From: Deltaproteobacteria bacterium
GTDB lineage: Bacteria; Myxococcota_A; Polyangia; JAAYKL01
Length of the DNA: 64,000 bases
Reading direction: 5' to 3'
Assembly: GCA_016935665.1 (NCBI GenBank)
Contig: JAFGQN010000077.1
Coordinates: forward strand, 36,456-100,455
The translations under genes and the position numbers were made by a program. The notes under the pieces are model-generated. The model had not been told where the DNA came from and searched no databases. It was given only the letters and a program-made list of their open reading frames with translations. This document shows positions 54,955 to 63,338 of the stretch, piece after piece. Within the stretch, counting starts at the first letter, position 1. Each line of letters opens with the position of its first letter.

Positions 54955-57689
54955 ATGGCAACTTCCCTGAATAAATCCCCAACTCACCAATCCGGCGATA
55001 CCCTGCTGTTGTCCTGCCGCTTTACACCGACCGGGCATATTGATATCACCCATGATGACGTCAACGCGGTTCAGACCGTATCAGCGAACATCTCGCAGCA
55101 GGTAACGGACGCCTTTGCCCGGGGACAGGGGTATGGTGTGCTGCATCTTGGGGTGGCCCATCTTTCAACTTCGCTGCCACTGTCACTGTCGTTCTGGCGC
55201 GACATAGGAAAAATGTTTGTCAGTGCGGTTTGCGGTGCACTTGACCCGACCTCCCCGTTGGCGGTGGTTATTCCGGAACCGGACGGACAGGAACTGGAAC
55301 AGCTGAAGCAGTCGGTTCCGCCCGTGCCAGGCGCCGAGTATATCGATATTGACGCGCTTCGTAATATCTGGAGACAGATGGGAGAATCGCTGACAGAGGA
55401 AGCCAAACGATTTAAACAGGGTGTTCAGGCATATTTGCAGCAGTACAGCTCCATATGGAACGTGGTGGGGCGCGTCTGCCTGCATCTGGCCGAAAACAGG
55501 CGCAACCCGGAATATCCTTTTGCATTTATCGCCACATATGTTCACAAGGTTTCATCGCAGGCCAAACCGCAGCATCTGCCGCTGGGACGCGCACTAAAAG
55601 AATATTCAGGCGCCCAAAATAAAAAAAAGCTGCTGGAGCTGCTGTCTCCGCTGTCACGGGCATCAGAAAAAAGCGCGTTTATCCGTGAAATGCTCGCATC
55701 AAAGGAAATTTATCATCCCCTGTCGTGGACGCCCAAAGAGGCCCATCATTTTCTGAGCGAAATCCCGCTGTATGAGCAGGCTGGTCTGGTGGTGAGGGTT
55801 CCGGACTGGTGGAATATTCACAAAAAACCGCGGCCGAAAGTGACCGTTTCATTGGGTGCCAAACCACCCGCTTCACTGGGAATGAATGCGTTGCTCGATT
55901 TTGACATAAAGATAACTCTGGATGGAAAAGCGCTTACCAAACGGGAAATCAACGAGCTTCTTAGTGCTGGTCACGGATTGACATTACTCAAGGGAAAATG
56001 GGTCGAGGTCAGCGAGGACCAGATTTCGCAGGTTCTAAACCAATGGCAGGCGCTGCAAAAACGAACATCCGAAGGCGGCATCAGCTTTGGCGAAGCAATG
56101 CGCCTGCTTGCGGGCACGAGCCCAGGCACGCCGCAGATTGTCAGCACTGATGAGTCACCGGAATGGTCGCAGGTCATCGCCGGGAAGTGGCTGTCTAAAA
56201 CAATCACCGAACTGCGGACGCCAGGGCAAATCCAACAGCAGAAAATCAACGCCGGACTCAAAGCGGTGCTCCGCCCATATCAGCGTTCGGGCGTCAGATG
56301 GCTCCAGACACTTTCCGCGCTGTCTCTTGGCGGATGCCTTGCGGATGACATGGGACTCGGTAAAACCATTCAGGTACTGGGGCTGCTCAATACAGCGCGT
56401 GAACGAAAGAAATCATCCGATCTGCTGATTGTACCGGCATCACTGGTTGAAAACTGGCAATCCGAGTGTGAGCGTTTCGCTCCGGACTTAAAACTGCTTC
56501 TGGCGCACCCGTCACACATTCCTTCTTCGCAATTGCTACAGTTGAAAGCCAGTGATGCTGATGCCTGCGATGTGGTGATTACCACCTACGGCACGGCGAT
56601 GAGAACCCCATGGATGTCCCAATACAACTGGCGTTATGTCATCCTCGATGAGGCACAGGCCACAAAAATCCGGGTGCCAAACAGACCGCAGCGATCAAGG
56701 CCATGAAATCAGACTGGAGACTGGCGCTTACCGGCACGCCAGTGGAAAACCGCCTTAAAGATCTGTGGTCCATCTTCGACTTTCTGAATCCCGGGCTGCT
56801 GGGATCGGCAGGCGCTTTTGACACTGCATGCAAAGCCATGGAAAAAAGTGGCAGCGGATACGCACCTCTGCGGCGTCTGGTGCAGCCGTATATCCTGCGC
56901 CGGTTAAAAACCGACAAGTCCGTCATTAACGATTTACCTGAAAAAACAGAGCTGAACGCCTATTGCATGTTGAGTAAAAAACAGGCAGCGCTGTATCAGC
57001 AATCTGTTGAGGAGATGCGAACCGCGCTCGAAGAAAAAAGCGGCATTGAGCGGCGCGGTCTGGTGTTGGCATTTTTAATGCGCTTCAAACAAATCTGCAA
57101 CCACCCGTCCCACTGGCTGGGAGACGGCGGCTTTGCCCCAAAAGAGAGTGGGAAATTTGATCGCCTGAACGAGCTGTGTGAAGAAATTGCCGAACGGCAG
57201 GACAAAGTACTGGTGTTTACCCAGTTTAAGGAAATGACCTCGCCGCTCGCCAATCATCTCACCGGCATATTCGGCCAGACTGGCGCGATCATTCATGGCG
57301 GCACGCCGGTTAAACAGCGGCAAAAACTGGTAACAGCATTTCAGGAAGATGACCATATCCCCTTCATGGTGCTGTCACTCAAAGCGGGCGGGACCGGGCT
57401 TAATCTGACCGCCGCGTCCCACGTGATTCATTTTGACCGCTGGTGGAACCCTGCCGTGGAAAATCAGGCAACGGATAGAGCTTTTCGCATTGGGCAGAAA
57501 AAAAATGTGCTGGTACACAAATTTGTTTGCAAAGGCACCGTGGAAGAACGCATTGATGAACTCATTGCAGGTAAGCGGGCGCTCACGAAGGAAATACTGT
57601 CTAAAGACGCTCAATCCCAATTAACCGAGATGAGCAATGATGAATTAATGGCCATGGTCTCGCTTGATATTCACAGTGCGATGGCGTAA
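54955..57689 (+). pseudogene. SNF2/SWI2-family DEAD/H helicase, interrupted by a 1-nt frameshift at about 56662-56668 (ORFs 54955..56706 and 56703..57689)
   Basis: First ORF holds motifs I-II (LADDMGLGKTIQVLG; RYVILDEAQA). Second ORF holds the rest (DWRLALTGTPVENRLKDLWSIFDFL; LSLKAGGTGLNLTAASHVIHFDRWWNPAVENQATDRAFRIGQ). Restoring 1 nt gives LDEAQA(T/I)KNPGAKQTAAIKAMKSDWRLALTGTP. Confidence 0.88.
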
Positions 57690-59078: not shown

Positions 59079-60524
59079 TCACAGATCTCGAAGTACGGCA
59101 AAGATGCGCTGACCGGGCCAGATGTGGCCATTGACAATGTAGCGGGGATTATCACCGGTGGTGAGGGTGTAGGTATTCGTTCCTGGGGTGAGCCGAGGGG
59201 TCCAGCGACCATCCTTTTCCTGCTCGTACCAGAGCTCGGCGAGCATCTGTGCGGGTTCGTCGGGGTTCTTCTGTAAATAGATCTGAATGCGGTAGAGTTG
59301 CTCGCGATTAATAATCACACCAAGCTCTATCATGCGGTCTTTGAGGGCAAGCCAGTTAAAGCCGTCCCCCTGCCCGAAATCGTACCCGTCAATGGCGCAT
59401 CCATTGCGATATGGCATACGGGATTGTCCCGAGCAGGCGCCGTTGACGCAGTCATCGCCCGCCCACCACGATACCTCGTCGGTCTCACGCCCCTTGAGTC
59501 CCCAATAACGGTCGGCATCTTCACCGATGACCGCATAGCCGGGCAGGAACGACTCCGCAGGGTAGTACGCTTCACTTCCGCCTGGCCAAATGGTCCTGGA
59601 CACGGCGACGATATCGCTCGATTTATTGATCACCACACACCGGAGTTCGTCATCCCAGTTTTTATAAGCCAGCTTTAAGTCGGCGGGCGGGGGCGCCTTG
59701 TCTTCCTCCGCCGGAAACGTGATGGGTTGTCGTTTGGGGATATACACATGACCTGTGGCATCGATGTGCAGGCCAAATGGCACATCGTTGTATGCCCCCT
59801 CGGGCCAGTCGGCCGCATCGGGAGAAAACTTGCTGAAAGTGACGCCGCCGGCACTGTTGCTTTCGAAGAGCCAGGTGGGGCGGATACCCACCTGATCCCT
59901 AAACCAGTAACCATAGCGATACCCCGGCCATGTGGTGTATACCCACATCTTGCTGGTGCCCTGGTATTTTTCAACTTCGGCCGAGATATCCTCCTGGATG
60001 GGCCATCCCAGGTTGGGCCCGCGCTCAACCACGCTCGGCTCCGAGTAGCCGGTAACCACCGGCGCATACACCAGATCGTCGGTCAGGCATGGAATATGGG
60101 GAAGCGCAAAATGACTGTCTGCCACATAGTATTCCCCCATATCCTGGACAGGAAATTCCTGGTCCTTATACACTTCCTGAAGCGTGTACCTTTTCGGAAG
60201 AGCCGTTATGACGGGATAGGTCTCGTTCACAAGCACCCTGTTTCCGTTCCCGTCGAGTTCGTAGCGAAGAAAGGCCACCTCGCCCACCTTTCGAATCTGG
60301 TAGGTGCTGAAATTCGGATCATCAACTATCGAGTAGCCATCCTCTGCGGCGTTGGGGCAGTCCGTAGGCACATAACTCGTTCCGTCAGTCGCCGGTCCCG
60401 CACCGTCCGATTCAGCAGGCGTCGTATCGCCACTCCCCTCGTTATCTGATTTTGAGCCACCTCCCGAGCAGGCAGCGAGGATGCAAGGCACGAGCAAAAT
60501 TAAGCAGTGTTGTTTCATCATCAT
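59079..60524 (-). CDS. Hypothetical lipoprotein
   Basis: 481 aa; signal peptide plus lipobox LVPCILAACSGGGS; no recognised domain. Confidence 0.65.
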   Translation of the reverse strand: MMMKQHCLILLVPCILAACSGGGSKSDNEGSGDTTPAESDGAGPATDGTSYVPTDCPNAAEDGYSIVDDPNFSTYQIRKVGEVAFLRYELDGNGNRVLVNETYPVITALPKRYTLQEVYKDQEFPVQDMGEYYVADSHFALPHIPCLTDDLVYAPVVTGYSEPSVVERGPNLGWPIQEDISAEVEKYQGTSKMWVYTTWPGYRYGYWFRDQVGIRPTWLFESNSAGGVTFSKFSPDAADWPEGAYNDVPFGLHIDATGHVYIPKRQPITFPAEEDKAPPPADLKLAYKNWDDELRCVVINKSSDIVAVSRTIWPGGSEAYYPAESFLPGYAVIGEDADRYWGLKGRETDEVSWWAGDDCVNGACSGQSRMPYRNGCAIDGYDFGQGDGFNWLALKDRMIELGVIINREQLYRIQIYLQKNPDEPAQMLAELWYEQEKDGRWTPRLTPGTNTYTLTTGDNPRYIVNGHIWPGQRIFAVLRDL

Positions 60525-60526
60525 GT

Positions 60527-61924
60527 TCAGACTCCCTTTGGCAAACGCAATTGCACCAGCCCGTCGACAAACGGACGGGATAACTCATTCGGCAGCGCCG
60601 GCAGCAGTGAAGTAAGCTCGTCCGGCACATTGTCCGGGTGAATAACCGCCACCTGCACCGTGCGCGTCGCCTCGTCGAGCAGTATCAGGTAGTAACGGTC
60701 GTCCAGCGCGCGCCGCCACATGGGGCCCTCTGCCATCGCGCGATTGTCCGCATCGATGACAGCGCCCGTCGTCATCGCAGTAACATGGTTCGCATCTACA
60801 AGATCCGCGTCGTCAGCGAACAAATCCACACTGCACCCCTGTATGCCGCAGGTGCTGCCCCCAAGCGAACCGACCTGGTACGAGCGAATGCCGGTACTGA
60901 TAACGTCCCTATTTCCCCACTCTGCACCAGACGTTTCGGCAATGACCTCAAAAACATTAATTTGACCGCACCCGTCACCCAGCGCGCCGTTCGTATTCGC
61001 GAAGCAGTGGCAGGGATGGTAGCCGGCCCAGCCGTCACGAATCAGCTCAGAGGCGCCCAGTCCAATCCATGGCGCATCCTGTTCCCGTTCGTCCTCCCCA
61101 TCGGCGATACAGCTTTTGGGAAGGAGTTCCGGGTCCTGCGTATAGGGCATCGCCGCAAGCAACAAGAAGAGCTTCGAACCCGCCCAGCCTTCGTAGTCCA
61201 GGCCGGACCCCGGGCAATATGGCACACTGTCCGGGCCACAGGAAAACGGTTTTTCCTGCATGGCATGAAACGCACAGTTGTTTCCCAGAATCCCATCAAA
61301 ATCGGTGGTGTCGCCTGGGCCAACGAAATGTATATTGAACGGGTCAGTCGAATCCCGATCCCAGTATGACCGAAGCCCCCACGAACCACCTTCTTCGAGG
61401 GGCTGATACACCGCGAACTGCTTCACCTTCAGGGGGCCTTCAATCACCATGGCCAGCTGCTCGTTAAAGGGTGTCAGACGGTCAGACGTCACATTATGAG
61501 TTGTGCGACAGCAGAACTCACTGCCCCCCCATGAATAGTTGAGTGTCTCAGACTGGACATCACACCGGTCGTCGCCAGGTTCCGCCTCAATGCGCCTTCC
61601 CCAATATCCAGGGGCGCCGATGTTGGTAAACGTGATGGTGCCTCCCAAAGTCACCGTTCCGCTGTTCTCCGCCGCGGGCGAGGTATGAGTGGGCGCGGCT
61701 CTGCCATCAAGGTCAGACCAGTTGCCCCCCTGCGTCCCGGTCGGCACATCCGGAACCGTCGAGCCAGTATCGTCGTCCGCCGTCGACGAGCCGGTGTCTG
61801 ACAAACTGTCTTTGGCATGATCGTTCTCGGAACAGGCCGGCAATACGGCCACCAACCAGCCGATGCCAAAGAATACCACCCACCAGAGTCGATCAATGGG
61901 CAGGAATAAAATATGGGTTTTCAT
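60527..61924 (-). CDS. Hypothetical lipoprotein
   Basis: From ATG at 61924 with GGAAAG upstream; lipobox GWLVAVLPACSEND; 2 bp from the next gene. Confidence 0.65.
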   Translation of the reverse strand: MKTHILFLPIDRLWWVVFFGIGWLVAVLPACSENDHAKDSLSDTGSSTADDDTGSTVPDVPTGTQGGNWSDLDGRAAPTHTSPAAENSGTVTLGGTITFTNIGAPGYWGRRIEAEPGDDRCDVQSETLNYSWGGSEFCCRTTHNVTSDRLTPFNEQLAMVIEGPLKVKQFAVYQPLEEGGSWGLRSYWDRDSTDPFNIHFVGPGDTTDFDGILGNNCAFHAMQEKPFSCGPDSVPYCPGSGLDYEGWAGSKLFLLLAAMPYTQDPELLPKSCIADGEDEREQDAPWIGLGASELIRDGWAGYHPCHCFANTNGALGDGCGQINVFEVIAETSGAEWGNRDVISTGIRSYQVGSLGGSTCGIQGCSVDLFADDADLVDANHVTAMTTGAVIDADNRAMAEGPMWRRALDDRYYLILLDEATRTVQVAVIHPDNVPDELTSLLPALPNELSRPFVDGLVQLRLPKGV

Positions 61925-62231: not shown

Positions 62232-63338
62232 CTAATCGCCGTCTACAATCATCTCTGAATCGGTATCCTGGCAACTTTCCCAGTAATTCCCATTTTCGTC
62301 AACGCCCCACGTGCAGGCCGGATCGATAATATCCTCCCAGCACTTCTCACTGCCATCCGCATAGACAGTGCAGCATTGCTTTATGCAGTTACCGTTTTCA
62401 GTATCCTGACAGTATTCATCACACCATGTGTAATCCTCTCCTCCACTGGCATCCTCCATACAGTAGTAGAAGGACTCATAGCAGTGGTCATGACAGAATT
62501 TGTCATCCCAGGCACATTCATCAACACAATAATCGTAGGTCTGTTCACATCTATCCACCGGCACTGGGCCCGGATTCACACATTGATCGTATTGCATGAA
62601 GCACCGATCATCGCATCCATAATTATAGAAACCATCAGAATCGCTACTGATGCAATCCAACGATTCTGAATCAATGTCCCCACCATTATAGACAATTCCA
62701 CAATCCGGGTAAAAATTGCAGGACCACAGACATTCATCCAGTTGCTCTTCGCATTTCTCAACAGGTGGATTCCAACAGTTCTCCAGTTCATATTCGCACT
62801 TTTCAAAGCAGCCTTCTGTGTCCACATCCAGAATCATGCAATCCTCAGAGTCTCCGTCATCCGTCACTGAACACTCCCAGCCTGTGTCCACATCCTTGCA
62901 CTCGCTGACGCACACATCAAACTGCTCTTCGCACTCATTCACGGGTTGTGGCGTCACGCACTGTGGCCAGCTCATTTCACATTCCGTCCAGCAATCCGGC
63001 ATCCAGCCAGTATCGGTATCCACAACTATATCGCTGTCACCGTCCACATCAGTATCCGCATCCACAAAAAATGGGGTCATATCACACCTGTCCAGACAGA
63101 CATAATACCCCTCACAATCAAACTCGGAGTCCGTTCCCTCATAAGGATAAGCTGTCTCGCTGTCCTGTATTGATACAGTATCTGAATCCATTGCCTCCGA
63201 TGCGGTATCCTCCCCTCCTTCCGTATCAAAGAAACCAAATTCGCCAAGATCCTGACAGCCAGCTCCCAAAGCCAGCCAACTCGCGATCATCAGTTGCCCC
63301 AGCAACTTCAATCCATTTTTTTCTTTCTTTTGTTTCAT
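62232..63338 (-). CDS. Acidic, Cys-rich repeat lipoprotein
   Basis: About 368 aa; lipobox WLALGAGCQD; about 37 Cys in regular C-x6-C-x3-C and C-x3-C-x6-C modules; Asp/Glu-rich. Confidence 0.75.
   Translation of the reverse strand: MKQKKEKNGLKLLGQLMIASWLALGAGCQDLGEFGFFDTEGGEDTASEAMDSDTVSIQDSETAYPYEGTDSEFDCEGYYVCLDRCDMTPFFVDADTDVDGDSDIVVDTDTGWMPDCWTECEMSWPQCVTPQPVNECEEQFDVCVSECKDVDTGWECSVTDDGDSEDCMILDVDTEGCFEKCEYELENCWNPPVEKCEEQLDECLWSCNFYPDCGIVYNGGDIDSESLDCISSDSDGFYNYGCDDRCFMQYDQCVNPGPVPVDRCEQTYDYCVDECAWDDKFCHDHCYESFYYCMEDASGGEDYTWCDEYCQDTENGNCIKQCCTVYADGSEKCWEDIIDPACTWGVDENGNYWESCQDTDSEMIVDGD

What the first reader, a model, noticed from the sequence alone, without database searches (positions are those of the whole stretch)
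62232..63338. Acidic Cys-rich lipoprotein built from mirrored C-x6-C-x3-C and C-x3-C-x6-C modules
Seen: about 37 Cys in about 368 aa, in regular units. C-x6-C-x3-C units: CEEQFDVCVSEC, CEEQLDECLWSC, CEQTYDYCVDEC. C-x3-C-x6-C units: CWTECEMSWPQC, CFEKCEYELENC, CDDRCFMQYDQC, CHDHCYESFYYC. CEGYYVCLDRC is a near match. The alternation suggests helical hairpins cross-linked by disulfides, or metal-binding repeats, separated by Asp-rich linkers. I do not recognise a family.
Basis: seen in the sequence. Interest (0 to 1): 0.65.

Follow-up and report, generated by a model that had tools for sequence, protein, structure and literature searches.

The report
Cysteine-stapled helical-hairpin lipoprotein array
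A bacterium of the phylum Myxococcota encodes an exported, probably lipid-anchored protein made of four small helix pairs, each apparently held together by three sulfur bridges; this belongs to a protein family that databases have missed, although similar stapled helix pairs are known from plants and marine worms.

Summary
The gene is on the minus strand (62232-63338): 368 aa, 37 Cys, an N-terminal signal with a lipidation-type Cys, and an acidic linker. The two Cys patterns are halves of one module, C-x6-C-x3-C / loop / C-x3-C-x6-C, present four times. Two paralogs in the same genome and two distant homologs in another genus give 24 modules in 5 proteins; all 24 keep all six Cys. Position 5 of helix 1 is always a large hydrophobic residue and position 9 of helix 2 is in 22 of 24, as expected for an antiparallel hairpin with a three-rung disulfide ladder. 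AlphaFold2 gives a confident helical hairpin for compact module 4 (mean pLDDT 91.9); the whole-protein model is poor (46.7). No Pfam or NCBIfam family matches the five proteins. The four weak PDB hits of the module profile (none significant) are plant or animal peptides known, or recalled, as stapled helical hairpins. Multi-module arrays occur in 2 of 318 genomes of the class, but single-hairpin lipoproteins of the same style occur across Myxococcota and twice in this genome. Best reading: a disulfide-stapled, protease-hardy surface scaffold, with the strongly conserved CAWDDKFCHDHCYE module as a probable binding site. Ligand and role are unproven.

The parts
62232..63338 (-). Cys-rich hairpin-array lipoprotein gene, 368 aa
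   Evidence: ORF and translation; two paralogs in the same genome
63344..63350 (-). Shine-Dalgarno-like GAGGGAG, 5 nt upstream of the ATG at 63338
   Evidence: sequence
63258..63338 (-). signal peptide, residues 1-27 (Lys-rich n-region, hydrophobic core, LGAG)
   Evidence: sequence; predicted helix 8-25; no signal-peptide predictor was available
63255..63257 (-). Cys28, presumed lipidated Cys
   Evidence: column invariant in all five homologs
63117..63254 (-). acidic Asp/Glu/Ser/Thr linker, residues 29-74
   Evidence: sequence; low-confidence, unstructured in the model
62958..63116 (-). hairpin module 1, residues 75-127 (C-x5-C-x3-C variant; 30-residue acidic loop)
62775..62933 (-). hairpin module 2, residues 136-188 (29-residue loop with one extra Cys pair)
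62580..62753 (-). hairpin module 3, residues 196-253 (34-residue loop with one extra Cys pair)
62460..62549 (-). compact hairpin module 4, residues 264-293, with near-invariant CAWDDKFCHDHCYE (6-residue loop)
   Evidence: structure model pLDDT 91.9; mostly synonymous divergence between copies
62271..62423 (-). C-terminal Cys-rich tail, residues 306-356; truncated form of a second repeat type (C-x3-C-xn-C-[FYWI]-x2-CC) that paralogs A and B carry three times
   Evidence: alignment of the paralogs, read by eye

Best explanation
The protein is exported and probably lipid-anchored to the outside face of a membrane by Cys28. An acidic flexible linker then carries four helix-turn-helix modules and a small Cys-rich tail. 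Each module is an antiparallel helical hairpin whose two helices are stapled by three nested disulfides (first to sixth Cys, second to fifth, third to fourth) plus a hydrophobic rung between helix-1 position 5 and helix-2 position 9. The staples let short, very acidic hairpins with variable loops stay folded outside the cell and resist proteolysis. The array acts as a surface scaffold, and the compact module 4, far from the anchor, with the conserved CAWDDKFCHDHCYE face, is the most likely binding site for a protein, glycan or metal partner. Shown here: modules, conservation, selection, export-type N-terminus, hairpin prediction for one module. Inferred: disulfide pairing, lipidation, surface exposure, protease resistance, binding role. 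My confidence is about 0.85 for the stapled-hairpin structure and about 0.4 for the scaffold-plus-binding-module role.
For: 24/24 modules in 5 proteins from two genera keep the six Cys while other columns vary (mean column identity 30%). Helix-1 positions 5 and 9 and helix-2 position 9 carry a large hydrophobic residue in 21/21, 19/21 and 22/24 modules against about 7, 7 and 8.6 expected. AF2 of module 4: two helices, pLDDT 91.9; the whole-protein model puts helix pairs at all four modules, at low confidence. The only four PDB sequences reached by the module profile at E<=10 are Ole e 6, neurotoxin B-IV, vicilin Jug r 2 and BWI-2c; Ole e 6, B-IV and BWI-2c are described as antiparallel helix pairs or helical hairpins, with disulfides reported for B-IV and BWI-2c (PMC8198727, PMC6410017, PMC7191063); Jug r 2 as a hairpin is from memory. 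Extra loop Cys come in even numbers in 21 of 24 loops. The genome encodes four VKOR domains on the same contigs and close to Thioredoxin_4 (DsbA-like) domains in frames of the same length, so apparently fusions, and seven further Thioredoxin_4 proteins. Copies of the CAWDDKFCHDHCYE core differ by 4-7 synonymous but 0-1 non-synonymous codons of 15.
Against: No disulfide geometry could be measured; the whole-protein model is poor; PDB similarities are not significant (best E 0.12; fold match E 3.0). One homolog, L024, has an odd number of Cys (49) and three of 24 loops hold one extra Cys. VKOR is general in the family (13 of 14 genomes), so it shows capacity, not a link. The lipobox is atypical. 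No conserved gene neighbourhood supports any role.
Confidence: 0.6

Rival explanations
1. Metal-binding repeats: reduced Cys clusters bind Cu, Zn or another metal as an extracytoplasmic store or buffer, with His-Asp-His of module 4 helping.
For: 37 Cys; C-H-D-H-C conserved in all five compact modules; very acidic; small Tim twin-CX3C hairpins bind zinc when reduced (PMC3759932).
Against: Export-type N-terminus in a genome with many disulfide-forming enzymes; mirror symmetry of Cys spacing is what a helix-helix ladder needs; only module 4 has the His pair; no Pfam or NCBIfam match; no metal-handling gene recognised next to the window gene or paralog B, and paralog A has only a general RND pump nearby.
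Confidence: 0.15
2. Protease inhibitor array: hairpins present a loop to serine proteases, as alpha-hairpinin trypsin inhibitors do, protecting the cell or its surface enzymes.
For: Tandem stapled hairpins; BWI-2c, a hairpin trypsin inhibitor of the type whose reactive Arg lies between the two CX3C motifs (PMC7191063), is one of the four PDB hits; the compact module has an invariant Lys in the same loop (AWDDKF).
Against: Loops of modules 1 and 3 of the window protein contain no Lys or Arg, and module 2 has only a Lys at the loop's first position; the loops are acidic; similarity to BWI-2c is not significant (E 0.85).
Confidence: 0.12
3. Released effector or toxin-like peptide array: modules are cut free and act on neighbouring organisms, as plant alpha-hairpinin cassettes or worm hairpin peptides do.
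For: Plant precursors with up to 12 tandem hairpin modules release antimicrobial peptides (PMC7191063); the only fold-search match is neurotoxin B-IV.
Against: The protein is strongly acidic (94 D+E against 9 K+R in the mature part), whereas PMC11591084 lists positive surface charge as a shared feature of antimicrobial peptides; no processing signal was recognised by eye; a membrane anchor would keep the protein on the cell; the fold match has E 3.0.
Confidence: 0.08
4. Carbohydrate-utilisation accessory: the array binds polysaccharide or docks degrading enzymes at the cell surface.
For: The window gene lies beside a Tos1-domain (fungal cell-wall family) lipoprotein, and paralog B lies close to a pectate-lyase lipoprotein and beside a CE2/GDSL esterase.
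Against: Paralog A and the G009 homolog sit beside unrelated genes (Lon, methyltransferase, RND pump, protein kinase); the base rate of such genes was not measured.
Confidence: 0.15

Closest known systems
Plant alpha-hairpinins (e.g. BWI-2c, vicilin leader modules)
   Same: Helix-loop-helix stapled by disulfides; the inner four Cys of module 4 fit CX3C-X6-CX3C; tandem cassettes exist (up to 12 modules, PMC7191063); weak PDB profile hits
   Different: Outer rung at x6 on both sides instead of the 4C or CX3CX3C 6C motif; loops of 29-34 residues in modules 1-3; acidic; bacterial lipoprotein; no significant sequence match
Neurotoxin B-IV of the worm Cerebratulus (PF07822, PDB 1vib)
   Same: Helical hairpin cross-linked by disulfides (PMC6410017); C-x3-C-x6-C spacing in the aligned stretch; top or second profile hit and only fold hit (TMq 0.60)
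   Different: 55 aa, four disulfides, secreted animal peptide; E-values not significant (0.27 to 3.0; Pfam best 0.016 for 2 of 24 modules)
Pollen allergen Ole e 6 (PDB 1ss3)
   Same: Acidic, six Cys, two antiparallel helices with a short loop (PMC8198727); best PDB profile hit, E 0.12
   Different: Single module, plant, different Cys spacing, function unknown
TraA Cys-rich repeats TIGR04201 of myxobacteria
   Same: Cys-rich tandem repeats in exported myxobacterial proteins, proposed to be a disulfide-bonded rigid stalk (PMC3325183)
   Different: No NCBIfam match in our proteins; no PA14 domain recognised
Mitochondrial twin CX3C (small Tim) and twin CX9C (CHCH) proteins
   Same: Paired Cys on two antiparallel helices forming nested disulfides (PMC12114033, PMC3759932)
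   Different: Two rungs, other spacing, soluble intermembrane-space proteins; no Pfam match

Membership tests
Plant alpha-hairpinins | Cys motif CX3CX4-20CX3C (4C) or CX3CX3CX4-20CX3CX3C (6C), per PMC11591084 | tested here: not met
   Modules are CX6CX3C-X6-34-CX3CX6C; in the window protein the inner four Cys fit 4C in module 4 only
Plant alpha-hairpinins | helix-loop-helix fold | tested here: met
   AF2 model of module 4, pLDDT 91.9, two helices; a prediction, not a solved structure
Plant alpha-hairpinins | nested disulfides between the helices | not testable with these tools
   model coordinates not returned; needs mass spectrometry
Neurotoxin B-IV family (PF07822) | match to the Pfam model | tested here: not met
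   2 of 24 modules, best E 0.016; no match for the full-length proteins
Neurotoxin B-IV family (PF07822) | same helical-hairpin fold | tested here: inconclusive
   Foldseek TMq 0.60 but E 3.0, prob 0.25
TraA-type Cys repeat TIGR04201 | match to the NCBIfam model | tested here: not met
   no NCBIfam family at E<=10 for the window protein nor at E<=1 for the homologs
Bacterial lipoprotein (kind of protein) | N-terminal signal followed by lipobox Cys | tested here: inconclusive
   Invariant Cys after a hydrophobic segment in five homologs; the -3 residue is Gly, Phe, Val, Ala, Leu in the five
Small Tim / CHCH proteins | twin CX3C or twin CX9C pattern and Pfam match | tested here: not met
   no Pfam match; three rungs rather than two
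Single-hairpin mini lipoproteins of Myxococcota (this study) | CX6CX3C ... CX3CX3C single module after the lipobox, profile similarity | tested here: inconclusive
   hhalign between module and mini profiles: probability 76.5, E 2.2e-5 in one pairwise test; helix 1 alike, outer Cys of helix 2 at x3 rather than x6

The most novel reading that the evidence does not exclude
Myxococcota carry an unrecognised superfamily of disulfide-stapled helical-hairpin lipoproteins: two-rung, three-rung single-module, and mirrored three-rung tandem arrays as in the window. The array's conserved compact module is a dedicated extracellular recognition or inhibitor site, a bacterial counterpart of the plant and animal hairpin peptides.
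Probability: 0.3. Interest if true: 0.65.

Novelty: new variant of a known kind. Interest (0 to 1): 0.5.

Why it matters
Stapled helical hairpins are best known as plant defence peptides, animal venom peptides and mitochondrial proteins. A bacterial family that uses the same staple in tandem on a probable lipoprotein, absent from Pfam and NCBIfam, adds a new host group and a new Cys geometry to that fold. It would give a small, foldable test case for how bacteria make dense disulfide ladders with VKOR-DsbA enzymes, and an engineering scaffold with tolerant loops (6-34 residues in one frame).

Tried and rejected
Close relatives by DNA pattern: genome contigs and viral-contig scans with the paralog alignment found none; a scan with the G009 protein found only its own record, which named the phylum. 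Alignment A4 was too diverse for a scan. Whole-protein AlphaFold was too poor to fold-search. Known-family assignment by Pfam and NCBIfam failed for all five proteins. Gene neighbourhoods of three paralogs and one homolog share nothing. Rejected: a chance pattern; the two motifs as separate units. L027 (E 0.0096) is a different lipoprotein with twin-CX3C hairpins, not counted as a module homolog. An earlier count said the Shine-Dalgarno spacer is 7 nt; on recount it is 5 nt.

Full report
Observation. The open reading frame lies on the minus strand at 62232-63338 and encodes 368 residues with 37 Cys. A GAGGGAG lies 5 nt upstream of the ATG at 63338. Half-motifs are far beyond chance (9 against about 0.7 expected; no shuffle of 20,000 reached 9), and so are strict full modules (3 against 0.009).

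Anatomy. After a Lys-rich hydrophobic N-terminus and Cys28 comes an acidic linker (29-74). Four modules follow: 75-127, 136-188, 196-253 and 264-293, then a Cys-rich tail (306-356). Each module is C-x6-C-x3-C, a loop of 6 to 34 residues, then C-x3-C-x6-C; the first has one residue less in its first half. So the two mirrored patterns are two halves of one module.

Relatives. The same genome has two paralogs, 438 aa (L006) and 420 aa (L003), each with five modules and a longer tail. A profile of the modules found two more proteins in another genus of the same family, G009 (L023 and L024). L023 is identical over its full length to a record titled Myxococcota bacterium isolate Prado146, which places the window genome in Myxococcota. 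In all, 24 modules keep all six Cys. Arrays were found in 2 of 318 genomes of the class; a wider profile added only two weak, non-array hits in the class and in 379 genomes of the phylum (L027, L043). L043 led to small single-hairpin lipoproteins with CX6CX3C ... CX3CX3C: matches in 12 of 52 genomes of another Myxococcota class and in 13 of 308 in the window's class, two of them in the window's genome (L070, L078) and one in each of the two other genomes of its genus. Some class members have only two rungs (L068, L069, L071, L075, L076). Module and mini profiles align with E 2.2e-5, probability 76.5, which suggests but does not prove common descent.

Fold. Helix-1 position 5 is large hydrophobic in every module, position 9 nearly always, helix-2 position 9 in 22 of 24; other positions are not enriched, except helix-2 position 6 (15 of 24). 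With the Cys at 1, 8, 12 and 1, 5, 12 this puts one stripe on each helix, in register for three disulfide rungs and one hydrophobic rung. AlphaFold2 of compact module 4 with the 24-row alignment gives two helices (2-14, 21-36) at pLDDT 91.9. The whole-protein model has mean pLDDT 46.7 but shows helix pairs at the modules. The four PDB sequences reached by the module profile at E<=10 are Ole e 6 (0.12), neurotoxin B-IV (0.27), vicilin Jug r 2 (0.67) and BWI-2c (0.85). Ole e 6 is described as two antiparallel helices with six Cys (PMC8198727), B-IV as a disulfide cross-linked helical hairpin (PMC6410017), and BWI-2c as two helices with disulfides Cys11-Cys32 and Cys15-Cys28 (PMC7191063), the nested pairing proposed here for the inner rungs. 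Jug r 2 as a stapled hairpin is from memory. Foldseek's only match is again B-IV (TMq 0.60, E 3.0). None of these is significant alone; their agreement supports the fold, not homology.

Disulfides or metal. The N-terminus implies export. The genome encodes four VKOR domains, each a few hundred bases from a Thioredoxin_4 domain in a frame of the same length (apparent VKOR-DsbA fusions), and seven more Thioredoxin_4 proteins, so disulfides can be made outside the cytoplasm; VKOR is general in the family and so not specific evidence. Extra loop Cys are even in number in 21 of 24 loops; mature Cys totals excluding the lipid Cys are even in four of five proteins.

Selection. The compact module is present once here and twice in each paralog. 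Its core CAWDDKFCHDHCYE differs between copies by 4-7 synonymous codons of 15 but only 0-1 non-synonymous. The conserved W, D, D, K, H, D, H are not needed for the ladder, so they probably form a site.

Context. Neighbours are a Tos1-domain lipoprotein (window), pectate-lyase and CE2-esterase lipoproteins (paralog B), Lon, a methyltransferase and an RND pump (paralog A) and a protein kinase (G009). There is no shared neighbourhood. Two of three loci near polysaccharide-type lipoproteins is a lead only; the base rate was not measured.

Verdict. A real, lineage-restricted, unlisted family of stapled-hairpin array lipoproteins. The fold is known elsewhere; its mirrored x6-x3 / x3-x6 tandem use on a bacterial lipoprotein was not met in the libraries or in the papers searched, which are open-access only. 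Structure claim strong (about 0.85), role uncertain.

Noticed in passing
60527-61924 (-): Lipoprotein with a YJL171C/Tos1 N-terminal domain (Pfam E 2.3e-10), a fungal cell-wall family, in a Myxococcota genome; the next gene (59079-60524) starts 2 nt downstream and is an unassigned lipoprotein.
   Followed up: no
L070:1455-1704 and L078:1386-1692 (own genome), L053-L063, L065: Family of about 70-80 aa single-hairpin lipoproteins CX6CX3C ... CX3CX3C across Myxococcota; the two tested had no NCBIfam assignment.
   Followed up: partly
L027:982-1659: Another Myxococcota lipoprotein (225 aa) with twin-CX3C hairpins.
   Followed up: no
L006 and L003, C-terminal regions: Second Cys repeat type, about three copies each (C-x3-C-xn-C-[FYW]-x2-CC-xn-C), shortened in the window protein.
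   Followed up: no
L023:1195-2631 (G009), between modules: Hairpin modules alternate with a different Cys module (C-x4-D-C ... G-x-C-V-x-D), so modules seem to be shuffled as units.
   Followed up: no
L045-L048: Four VKOR domains apparently fused to Thioredoxin_4 domains in the genome of the window.
   Followed up: partly
54955-57689 (+): SNF2-type helicase reading frame split in two overlapping ORFs (54955-56706 and 56703-57689), a possible frameshift or assembly error; judged from the sequence only.
   Followed up: no
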